Source of the DNA: a bacterium
Lineage (GTDB): Bacteria > UBP6 > JAFGXH01
Length of the DNA: 8,442 bases
Reading direction: 5' to 3'
Assembly (NCBI GenBank): GCA_027064085.1
Contig: JAMOQH010000123.1
Coordinates: 1 to 8,442 of the forward strand
The notes beneath the pieces are model-generated. The model saw only the letters and a list, made by a program, of their open reading frames with translations, was not told the origin of the DNA and searched no databases. How positions within the stretch are numbered: the first letter of the stretch is position 1; each line of letters starts with the position of its first letter. Positions 1-2,964 of the stretch are shown here, in pieces. A program made the position numbers and the translations under genes.

Positions 1-728
1 AGAGCTTCTTTAATATCTATTCTATCACTTGATATTAATTTAACAAATTTATTAATTTTATCAAGCATTATTAATTCTTTTTCTTTGTCATAACCTGATA
101 ATATTTGCTTTATTTTTAATATTATTTCGTCTAAATCTTCCTGATTAATTTCTTTATTATCCGTTGCTAAAATATTACTCAATAAATTATCTATCGCTTT
201 TAAGTCTTTTAAACTCTTTTCGTTTAACATTATTTTATAAATATTAAATTTAGGTATATAATTTATTGCATTATTAAATGGTTGTTCTATTAGTTTACTT
301 AAATCAAATTCAAAATTCCACTTAGTCTCCCCAATATAAAATAATATAGGAAGAATAAAAGGTAATTTTTTATCTTTATCATTTTTATTTCTGTTTTTTA
401 AAATATCAATATGCAATAAACTATCATAAATTAAAAATCTAAAAGGCATCTTTCTATCTGGGATTGATTGAAATTCTATGTGAATATAAAAATAAATTTT
501 ATTAGCTTTAAGTTTAACGCTCCAAAGTAAATCTTTTCTAAATTCTTTTAAGTCTTCTGATAAAAAATCTGTTTTTTCTTTTTTTAAAGTTCTAAAATCT
601 ATATTTTTAACCCAATCTTCGTTAATGAATCCTGTAATTAATTGTTTCATTAATATTTTATTATCTAAGAGCTCTTTTAAGATTTTATCATAACGGTTTT
701 CTATTTTATTTTTATCCTTATTTTTCAC
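1..728 (-). CDS. Rpn family recombination-promoting nuclease / putative transposase (PF04754 type), 3' end outside window
   Basis: My translation of the minus strand from a GTG at 728 stays open to the left edge, giving 242 visible residues and no stop, so the C-terminus is missing. The protein opens with a charged helix (NRYDKILKEL), then INEDWVKNIDF, and carries the PD-(D/E)XK-like core of the Rpn family: FRKDLLW with Asp66, then YFYIHIEFQS with Glu85 and Gln87 (an ExQ motif), PDRKMPFRFL, and KLPFILPILFYIGETKW near residues 130-150. In the family these residues form a magnesium-dependent DNA endonuclease site; E. coli RpnA promotes RecA-independent recombination, and the old annotation is transposase_31. 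The GTG start is chosen because a perfect AGGAGG lies 8 nt upstream and an in-frame TGA lies just before the GTG. The motifs are intact, so an active enzyme is plausible. Family assignment is strong; cellular role (mobile, recombination or phage defence) is inference. Confidence 0.85.
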   Translation of the reverse strand, partial: MKNKDKNKIENRYDKILKELLDNKILMKQLITGFINEDWVKNIDFRTLKKEKTDFLSEDLKEFRKDLLWSVKLKANKIYFYIHIEFQSIPDRKMPFRFLIYDSLLHIDILKNRNKNDKDKKLPFILPILFYIGETKWNFEFDLSKLIEQPFNNAINYIPKFNIYKIMLNEKSLKDLKAIDNLLSNILATDNKEINQEDLDEIILKIKQILSGYDKEKELIMLDKINKFVKLISSDRIDIKEA

Positions 729-736
729 TATTCAAA

Positions 737-742
737 CCTCCT
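737..742 (-). promoter_or_regulatory. Ribosome binding site of the rpn gene
   Basis: CCTCCT on the plus strand reads AGGAGG on the minus strand, 8 nt from the GTG at 726-728. This ideal Shine-Dalgarno sequence fixes a non-ATG start for the nuclease gene. Confidence 0.75.
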
Positions 743-748
743 AATAAG

Positions 749-777
749 AGTATAACTTCTTTTATTTAAATGTGCAA
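749..777 (-). promoter_or_regulatory. Candidate sigma70 promoter of the rpn gene
   Basis: On the minus strand, TTGCAC (772-777) and TATACT (749-754) are separated by 17 bp. The -10 matches 5 of 6 consensus bases; the -35 matches only TTG. The predicted start near 742 falls almost on the RBS, giving a leader of about 14 nt. Such boxes arise easily in AT-rich DNA, so this is a moderate call. Confidence 0.4.
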
Positions 778-802
778 GTGAGGAAAATTTTATTTAATTG
801 CA

Positions 803-883
803 ATTCGTAATATGTAGTTTTTATGAGATTACAAAGAGATTAACATAGTAAAAGATAAAATAATAAAAAAACAAATTACGAAT
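803..883. repeat. 81-bp segment bounded by 9-bp perfect inverted repeats
   Basis: ATTCGTAAT at 803-811 is the exact reverse complement of ATTACGAAT at 875-883. The 63 bp between them is A-rich and has no reading frame of note. The right arm overlaps a second small palindrome, AATAACAGTTATT (881-893). It lies upstream of the rpn promoter and could be a small non-autonomous repeat, a pair of protein-binding half-sites, or chance; no flanking target duplication is evident. Confidence 0.35.
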
Positions 884-891
884 AACAGTTA

Positions 892-976
892 TTATATCTG
901 AAGTTTCCCCTTTTTGTAAAGCAAAAGCAGAGGAATAGCAAGCAAAATGCTTGACGGAGTGGGTATAAAGATATAA
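892..976. repeat. GC-rich hairpin island enclosed by 8-bp inverted repeats (candidate MITE-like repeat or structured RNA)
   Basis: The outer arms TTATATCT (892-899) and AGATATAA (969-976) are perfect inverted repeats. Inside them CCC (907-909) can pair with GGG (961-963), CTTT (910-913) with AAAG (918-921), and CAAGCA (939-944) with TGCTTG (948-953) over a 3-nt AAA loop. The stretch 900-963 is about 44% G+C (28 of 64 bases), against roughly a quarter for the surroundings. No convincing coding frame or RBS is present. A GC-rich, foldable island in an AT-rich intergenic region is the usual look of a structured RNA or a small dispersed palindromic repeat. It lies just past the htpG stop; the hairpin at 939-953 has no U-tract on either strand, so it is not a standard terminator. 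Which class it belongs to cannot be told here. Confidence 0.5.
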
Positions 977-1026: not shown

Positions 1027-2964
1027 CTAGTTAACCATTAATTCAGTTAATCTATTAACAAATTCAGTTGGATTTGCAGGAGTTAAACCTTCCATTAATA
1101 AAGCTTGATCTAAAAGCATATTTGTATAGTTCTTAAATTTTTGGGACTCTTTATCTTCGTTATACAACTCTTTAATTTTTGTATATAATTTATGCTCAGG
1201 ATTGATTTCAAGTATTTTTTCTGCTTTAGGCACAAAAGCATCATAATCTTTTAATACTTTTTCCATATTTAAACTAACACTACCTTCACCACTAACTATA
1301 CAAACAGGGCTAGTTTTTAGCCTATTAGTAAATCTAACTTCTTTAACTGATTCACCTAAGATAGTTTTCATTGCTTCTAAAATTTCTTTTTCAGATTCTT
1401 GTTTTTCTTTTATTTCTTTTTTTTCTTCTTCTGTAGTACTAGACTCAACATCACCTTTACTTATAGATTGAATCTTTTTACCATCAAATTCAGATAAATT
1501 AGTAGTAATAAATTCATCAATTCTGTCTAAGAAATATAAAACTTCATAATCTTTATCTCTAAAATATTCCATTTGAGGAGAATTTTCTATAGTAGCTTTA
1601 GAATTTCCGACTGCAAAATAAATTTTCTCTTGGCCTTCTTCCATTCTATCAACATATTCTTTTAAAGTAACAAATTCACCATCTTTAGTTTTAGATGATT
1701 CAAAAATTAATAAATCAGCAATTTTATCTTTTGCACCATAATCAGCATAAATCCCATTTTTTAGTATTTTACCAAATTCATTCCAAAACTCAATATAAGT
1801 AGCCCTTTCTGAATTTAAGATATATTTTAAACTATCATGAACTTTTTTCTCAATATTTTTAGCAATAACTTTTAATTGAGTTGTTTTTTGTAAAATCTCA
1901 CGGCTAATATTTAATGAGAAATCACTGCTGTCAACTAAACCTTTTACAAATTTAAAATAATCAGGAAGTAAATCCTCACATTTATCTTTAATAAATACAT
2001 TTTTGCTATATAATTTAATTCCTTTTTTAAATCCTGGAGTATTAAAATCAAAAGGAGCTTTTTTAGGGATAAATAATAAAGTTGTAAATTCAACAGTACC
2101 TTCTGCTTTTGAATGAATAACATCAAGAGGGTCTGTCCAATCATGAAAAGTTTGTTTATAGAAATCATTATATTCTTCATCTTTTACTTCATTTTTATTC
2201 TTTAACCATATTGGTTTCATTGCATTAATTGTTTCTATCTCCTTTGATTTAGTTGGCTCTGCTTCGTAATCTGGACTACCATCCTCTTTTTTAGGATATT
2301 CAGTTTTTTCAACTTCCATTTTAACAGGGTATCTTACAAAGTTTGAGTATTTAGTAATTAAATTCTTTAAAATATATTCACTAGTATAGTCCTCAAAAGT
2401 TTCATCTCCTTCTGTTTTTTCTTTTAAATGAAGAGTAATGCTTGTTCCTCTATCAGCTTTTTCTATTTCTTCTATAGTATAAGTACCATCTCCCGTTGAC
2501 TCCCAAATAATTCCTTTATCTGAATCAGAAGATTTTGTAACTACAGTAACTTTGTCAGCAACCATGAATGCAGAATAAAATCCAACACCAAACTGGCCTA
2601 TTAATTCCATGTCCATATTTTCTTTATTTTCTACATTTTCTAGTGATTTAATAAAGTTTTCTGTTCCTGATTTAGCAATAGTACCAAGATTTTCAACAAC
2701 TTCTTCTCTAGTCATTCCAATACCATTATCAGAGATAGTTAAAGTTTTAGCTTCAATATCAGCTTTTATGAAAAGCCCTAACTCTTCATCTTCTTTAAGT
2801 AATGAATTTTCAGTTAATGATTTAAACTTTAATTTATCAATTGCATCACTTGCATTTGATACTAATTCTCTTAAAAAGATTTCTTTATTTGTATAAATTG
2901 AGTGAATCATTAAATCTAAAAGTTTTTTTGTTTCTGTTTGAAAACTTCTTTGTTCTTTTGCCAT
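1027..2964 (-). CDS. htpG: HtpG, bacterial Hsp90 molecular chaperone
   Basis: This 645-residue cytosolic ATP-dependent chaperone is slightly longer than the roughly 620 residues of E. coli HtpG. The N-terminal GHKL ATPase domain (about 1-235) shows the Bergerat motifs in order: RELVSNASDAIDKL with catalytic Glu33 and Asn37, the nucleotide-binding DNGIGM with Asp79, the lid segment GTIAKSGTENF (94-104) and GQFGVGFYSAFMVA (123-136). The middle domain (about 240-510) has LNISREILQ with Arg355, the residue that contacts the ATP phosphate in this family. A charged EEEKKEIKEKQ linker leads to the dimerisation domain ending LTELMVN; there is no MEEVD tail, as expected in bacteria. AGGAG sits 6 nt before the ATG. 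It is transcribed divergently from the M18 gene. I see no CIRCE element upstream, so HrcA control is not supported. No clear hairpin-U terminator follows the stop. Confidence 0.98.
   Translation of the reverse strand: MAKEQRSFQTETKKLLDLMIHSIYTNKEIFLRELVSNASDAIDKLKFKSLTENSLLKEDEELGLFIKADIEAKTLTISDNGIGMTREEVVENLGTIAKSGTENFIKSLENVENKENMDMELIGQFGVGFYSAFMVADKVTVVTKSSDSDKGIIWESTGDGTYTIEEIEKADRGTSITLHLKEKTEGDETFEDYTSEYILKNLITKYSNFVRYPVKMEVEKTEYPKKEDGSPDYEAEPTKSKEIETINAMKPIWLKNKNEVKDEEYNDFYKQTFHDWTDPLDVIHSKAEGTVEFTTLLFIPKKAPFDFNTPGFKKGIKLYSKNVFIKDKCEDLLPDYFKFVKGLVDSSDFSLNISREILQKTTQLKVIAKNIEKKVHDSLKYILNSERATYIEFWNEFGKILKNGIYADYGAKDKIADLLIFESSKTKDGEFVTLKEYVDRMEEGQEKIYFAVGNSKATIENSPQMEYFRDKDYEVLYFLDRIDEFITTNLSEFDGKKIQSISKGDVESSTTEEEKKEIKEKQESEKEILEAMKTILGESVKEVRFTNRLKTSPVCIVSGEGSVSLNMEKVLKDYDAFVPKAEKILEINPEHKLYTKIKELYNEDKESQKFKNYTNMLLDQALLMEGLTPANPTEFVNRLTELMVN

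What the first reader, a model, noticed from the sequence alone, without database searches (positions are those of the whole stretch)
892..976. GC-rich, multi-hairpin island with 8-bp terminal inverted repeats downstream of htpG
Seen: perfect outer arms (892-899/969-976), an inner CAAGCA-AAA-TGCTTG hairpin, a smaller CTTT/AAAG hairpin, and about 44% G+C in 900-963, against roughly a quarter around it. Known: in AT-rich genomes such islands often mark structured ncRNAs or small non-autonomous repeats. Inference: this is either an undescribed sRNA/3'-UTR element of htpG or a copy of a dispersed palindromic element. Its position next to an Rpn (transposase_31-like) gene makes the mobile reading worth testing.
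Basis: partly seen in the sequence, partly recalled or inferred. Interest (0 to 1): 0.6.

Follow-up and report, generated by a model that had tools for sequence, protein, structure and literature searches.

The report
Lone, worn dispersed hairpin repeat
The GC-rich spot after the htpG gene is most likely a single, worn copy of a two-hairpin DNA repeat that is scattered in many copies through related bacterial genomes; it is the only clear copy found in its own genome and has no shown tie to the multi-copy nuclease gene beside it.

Summary
In detail: 900-963 is 43.75% G+C (window 26.5%), and the arms and the CAAGCA-AAA-TGCTTG hairpin are there. The 8-bp AT-rich outer arms are expected by chance. 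By BLAST the island has no second copy in its genome and no convincing copy in 27 phylum relatives. Read on the htpG strand, however, it shows the anatomy of a dispersed two-hairpin repeat, CCTCTC[A/C]GT-[C-hairpin-G]-[A/C]CA[C/G]CTC[C/T]CC-loop-GG(G/A)GAG[C/G]C, which I recognised from memory and then tested. A covariance model built only from viral-contig copies picks 962-900(-) as the best window hit (15.8 bits; next 3.6) and finds nothing at E<=10 in 98 kb of other host DNA. It finds 12-28 copies in 13 of 15 genomes of a sister genus, often as inverted pairs. Anchor plus first hairpin score 25.2 bits; 0 of 3000 shuffles reach this. But the second hairpin is badly diverged, the family was chosen after seeing the island, and genome-wide significance is marginal. 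Best reading: a solitary decayed REP-like element, possibly acting as htpG's 3' hairpin. The Rpn gene next door is a separate multi-copy family whose shared upstream DNA stops just short of the island. Low to moderate interest.

The parts
900..962 (-). Proposed element: diverged two-hairpin dispersed repeat
   Evidence: Best hit of covariance model R1 in the window, 15.8 bits, model positions 1-50, next best 3.6 bits; R2 aligns 962-913, 15.6 bits
954..962 (-). 5' anchor CCACTCCGT, compared with family CCTCTC[A/C]GT
   Evidence: alignment; score
939..953 (-). Hairpin 1, CAAGCA-TTT-TGCTTG (6 bp, 3-nt loop), directly after the anchor as in the family, followed by CTA (family [A/C]CA)
905..935 (-). 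Hairpin 2, TTCCTCTGCTTTTG-CTTTA-CAAAAAGGGGAA, possible degenerate counterpart of CTC[C/T]CC...GG(G/A)GAG
   Evidence: Folds; only weakly matched by R1, not matched by R2
892..899 (.). Left outer 8-bp arm; outside the element, expected by chance
969..976 (.). Right outer 8-bp arm; outside the element, expected by chance
891..920 (-). Promoter-like TTTACA-18-TATAAT pointing at the Rpn gene, overlapping the island edge (consensus match only)
   Evidence: 11/12 matches, 0.037 such sites expected per shuffled 729-1026
1027..2964 (-). htpG (HSP90), the gene whose 3' side carries the island; no terminator-like site found between it and Rpn

Best explanation
The island at 962-900 (- strand) is a single, AT-drifted copy of a dispersed two-hairpin palindromic repeat (REP-like) that is abundant in other genomes of the same phylum and in metagenomic viral contigs. 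It is not part of the Rpn repeat beside it. Lying 64 nt after htpG in htpG sense, it would be transcribed as an RNA with two hairpins and most likely now acts, if at all, as a 3'-end hairpin (messenger protection or weak termination) for htpG. Shown: anatomy, the match to the model, abundance in relatives, solitary state in this genome. Inferred: common descent with the family, past mobility, the 3'-end role.
For: A model of the family (R1, 17 copies from viral contigs; 7 base pairs with two-sided changes, 28 such cells against 5.8 in shuffles) has the island as best window hit, positions 1-50, 15.8 bits, E 0.0043 in the window. No hit at E<=10 in 98 kb of other host loci. A second model (R2, 72 copies) gives 15.6 bits and again no hit in the host controls. 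With host base composition, anchor + hairpin 1 + tail scores 25.2 bits; the best of 3000 island shuffles is 12.5, and the next best in 240 kb of host loci is 19.0, an unrelated palindrome fetched because the model had flagged it. The family is present in the phylum: 21 of 28 genomes have hits, 12-28 in 13 of 15 genomes of one sister genus, up to 58.6 bits, often in inverted pairs. Of 24 viral-contig matches to a looser spelling of the island's two anchors, none has a 6-bp hairpin between them.
Against: The family was chosen after seeing the island, from memory. Genome-wide the R1 score is not significant (0.0043 scaled to 3.65 Mb is about 2), and unrelated host palindromes reach 13.6 bits. Hairpin 2 departs strongly from the family; R2 does not align it. 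No intermediate copies were found. The two same-family genomes have only single-hairpin hits. No empty site is available to show insertion.
Confidence: 0.55

Rival explanations
1. A unique htpG 3'-UTR structure (imperfect terminator or messenger-end hairpin) with no relation to the dispersed repeat; the resemblance is chance.
For: No sequence copy in the genome or phylum by BLAST; the - strand folds better than shuffles; no other terminator-like site after htpG; a same-family relative has a strong hairpin with a T-run right after htpG (L159).
Against: Anchor, hairpin and tail match the repeat far beyond shuffles and host controls. No U-run directly follows hairpin 2. 3.9% of host intergenic pieces fold as well.
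Confidence: 0.33
2. An undescribed small regulatory RNA, or a leader of the Rpn gene started from the 11/12 promoter-like site at 920-891.
For: Promoter-like site TTTACA-18-TATAAT on the Rpn strand.
Against: No homologue, no Rfam match; the other Rpn copies share a conserved promoter-like sequence nearer the gene and do not share the island.
Confidence: 0.08
3. Part or end of a mobile unit formed with the Rpn (transposase_31-like) gene.
For: Rpn is in about 26 pieces in this genome with shared upstream DNA.
Against: Shared DNA stops at about 884-889, left of the island; no other Rpn copy seen has the island.
Confidence: 0.04

Closest known systems
Two-hairpin dispersed repeat CCTCTC[A/C]GTC-hairpin-[A/C]CA[C/G]CTC[C/T]CC...GG(G/A)GAG[C/G]C (viral contigs L234-L352; sister-genus genomes; one titled host, Selenomonadales L032). 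No description found in the papers or in Rfam that I could search
   Same: Order of parts: 5' anchor ending CTCCGT, hairpin starting at the next C, short tail ending in A, pyrimidine-rich arm, purine-rich arm
   Different: Anchor CCACTCC, not CCTCTCC; tail CTA, not [A/C]CA; hairpin 2 longer and strongly diverged; solitary, no inverted partner; AT-drifted
CGTC-tagged REP elements (Di Nocera et al. 2013, PMC3733652)
   Same: CGTC at one end of a short palindrome; the family's tail resembles the CCA tail described there
   Different: Published stems are 8-9 bp and nearly always begin with complementary A-T pairs; here 6 bp including the tag's C; a second hairpin is present; not multi-copy in the host
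GTAG-tagged REPs and RAYT transposases (PMC3733652)
   Same: Short dispersed palindromes, inverted pairs (in the relatives)
   Different: No GTAG tag; genomes richest in the two-hairpin repeat mostly lack a Y1 transposase

Membership tests
Two-hairpin dispersed repeat (models R1/R2) | 5' anchor CCTCTC[A/C]GT | tested here: met
   CCACTCCGT, one mismatch
Two-hairpin dispersed repeat (models R1/R2) | Hairpin 1 opening at the C right after GT, closed by G | tested here: met
   CAAGCA-TTT-TGCTTG
Two-hairpin dispersed repeat (models R1/R2) | Tail [A/C]CA, then CTC[C/T]CC / GG(G/A)GAG hairpin 2 | tested here: inconclusive
   CTA, then CCTCT...AGGGG with a long loop; R1 aligns it with mismatches, R2 does not
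Two-hairpin dispersed repeat (models R1/R2) | Multiple copies in the host genome | tested here: not met
   No other full copy in G000 by pattern, BLAST or model. This is a property of the family's genomes, not of the single element
Two-hairpin dispersed repeat (models R1/R2) | Family present in the phylum | tested here: met
   21 of 28 genomes with hits at E<=1, strongest in one sister genus
CGTC-tagged REP (PMC3733652) | CGTC tag next to the palindrome | tested here: met
   956-953 on the - strand reads CGTC
CGTC-tagged REP (PMC3733652) | 8-9 bp stem beginning with A-T pairs, 4-5 nt loop | tested here: not met
   6-bp stem, 3-nt loop; criteria
Known Rfam RNA | Score above gathering threshold | tested here: not met
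   No match
Rpn-associated mobile unit | Island shared with other Rpn copies | tested here: not met
   Shared DNA ends at about 884-889

The most novel reading that the evidence does not exclude
The two-hairpin repeat is an undescribed, cross-phylum family of dispersed palindromic elements with covarying hairpins that spreads without a Y1 (RAYT-type) transposase, and the island is a fossil copy now serving as the 3' end of htpG.
Probability: 0.2. Interest if true: 0.5.

Novelty: new member of a known kind. Interest (0 to 1): 0.3.

Why it matters
The island itself is minor: one worn copy of a REP-like element. The family behind it may matter more: it occurs in viral contigs and in several lineages, its hairpins covary, its copies often lie in inverted pairs, it has no Rfam entry, and I found no paper that describes it. 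In this phylum the genomes with most copies mostly lack the transposase type proposed for REP elements, which makes the question of how such palindromes spread testable there.

Tried and rejected
BLAST of the island against its own genome, 27 phylum relatives, phages and plasmids: no convincing match. Exact 23-mer in viral contigs: none. A strict spelling of the element (ACTCCGTC..CCTCT..AGGGGA) in 386 genomes: 6 hits including the island, against about as many for the reversed-pattern control; the G051 hit lies inside a gene. Other spellings with CACCCCTC or AGGGG: only chance hits or none. Comparison of htpG downstream regions in relatives: nothing alignable. Rfam at relaxed threshold: only chance-level hits. 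Y1 transposase (RAYT) as mobiliser: the host has 3, but 14 of the 15 genomes of the copy-rich genus have none, so not supported. Outer 8-bp arms as terminal repeats: chance. Literature search for the repeat: only unrelated papers.

Full report
What is there. The window is one whole contig (C123) of a 3.65 Mb, 195-contig genome. Its genes are an Rpn / Transposase_31 gene (3-728, -, cut by the contig end), htpG (1027-2964, -), an M18 peptidase, a chemotaxis receptor with a NIT domain and a VWA-like protein. The island lies in the 298-nt gap between htpG and Rpn. The G+C contrast is real and uncommon for intergenic DNA of this genome. The outer 8-bp arms, seven of whose eight base pairs are A-T, are at chance level.

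Copies. By BLAST the island is unique in its genome and has only weak, partial matches (best E 0.0036) in the 27 other genomes of its phylum; phages and plasmids give nothing convincing. htpG is found in 24 of 30 relatives, but I saw no similarity to the island in the DNA after it.

The neighbour. The Rpn gene is in about 26 pieces in this genome, several 95-97% identical. Their shared upstream DNA runs from the start codon to, at most, 863-889 in window coordinates, with a common edge like CTGTGATTCGTAATTTG near 884; beyond it the copies differ. The island starts a few bases past that edge and was seen with none of the other copies. The Rpn repeat and the island are therefore separate.

The lead and its test. 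On the htpG strand the island reads CCACTCCGT-CAAGCA-TTT-TGCTTG-CTA-TTCCTCT...AAAAAGGGGAAACTTC. This resembled, from memory, a two-hairpin repeat of gut bacteria. I treated that as a lead. The copies share a 5' anchor, a variable but paired first hairpin, and a second hairpin. In 17 copies chosen for a 6-bp first hairpin like the island's, 99.6% of cells pair and 28 cells are changed on both sides, against 5.8 in shuffles; sliding the partners destroys this. The choice by pairing guarantees pairing in hairpin 1, so only hairpin 2 is an unforced test of pairing. The window was not used in building the model.

Result. Model R1 picks 962-900 (-) as the best match in the window, over its whole length, 15.8 bits, next 3.6. 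In 98 kb of other host DNA no position reaches E 10. Model R2, from 72 copies including the phylum's, gives 15.6 bits but aligns only the anchor, hairpin 1 and the last bases, and finds nothing in the host controls. A simple score of anchor, hairpin 1 and tail, using host base composition, gives 25.2 bits; none of 3000 shuffles passes 12.6. In the phylum the model finds hits in 21 of 28 genomes, 12-28 in 13 of 15 genomes of one sister genus and up to 58.6 bits (counts may be low because candidates were capped at 150). Many are inverted pairs, in gaps between genes or overlapping open frames. The 80 htpG loci fetched from bacterial genomes held one strong copy, in a Selenomonadales genome.

Limits. 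The family was picked after seeing the island, so the significance is inflated by an unknown number of alternatives. Scaled to the whole genome the R1 match would have E of about 2 (my arithmetic), and unrelated host palindromes reach 13.6 bits. Hairpin 2 is poor. The two same-family genomes offer no clear copy. Membership is therefore probable, not shown; I put it at 0.55.

Mechanism. REPs are described as lying mostly downstream of coding regions, many plausibly transcribed, and as hypothesised to act in termination and mRNA stabilisation (PMC3733652). Here the element begins 64 nt after htpG, in htpG sense, with no terminator-like site in the gap. The - strand folds into the two hairpins. 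A weak 3'-end role is the simplest use; it is inferred, not shown. How the family spreads is unknown: 14 of the 15 genomes of the copy-rich genus have no Y1 transposase hit.

Comparison. The CGTC-tagged REPs of Di Nocera et al. share the CGTC tag and a CCA-like tail but have 8-9 bp stems beginning with A-T pairs; the island does not meet that. I found no description of the two-hairpin family in the papers searched, and Rfam has no match to its copies. That is absence from the sources held, not proof of novelty.

Noticed in passing
window 3-884 (-): Rpn / Transposase_31 gene is a dispersed multi-copy family: about 26 pieces in the genome, many at contig ends, shared 65-165 bp upstream with a conserved TTGCAC-17-TATACT promoter-like sequence, variable KGIEKGIEKG repeats and divergent 3' flanks.
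   Followed up: partly
window 795-891: 27-nt inverted repeat (78%) upstream of Rpn; the - strand folds at z -4.15. A related copy (C122, L188) shows ATTCATAA/TTATGAAT where the window has ATTCGTAA/TTACGAAT.
   Followed up: partly
L011:66-126: Upstream of another Rpn copy, three GTAGAGACAGGGCATTGC palindrome units resembling GTAG-tagged REPs replace the usual sequence.
   Followed up: no
L375:1501-1538 and L377:1501-1531: Host palindrome CCGTACAGTCAGGGCACTGCCCTGAC in two places of the genome, apparently a separate repeat family.
   Followed up: no
L362:1723-1803: DUF3800-VII RNA (RF02967) match, 60.1 bits, close to a pair of two-hairpin repeats in a phylum relative.
   Followed up: no
G003-G027 genomes: The genus richest in the two-hairpin repeat has almost no Y1 transposase genes, unlike the host, which has three.
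   Followed up: partly
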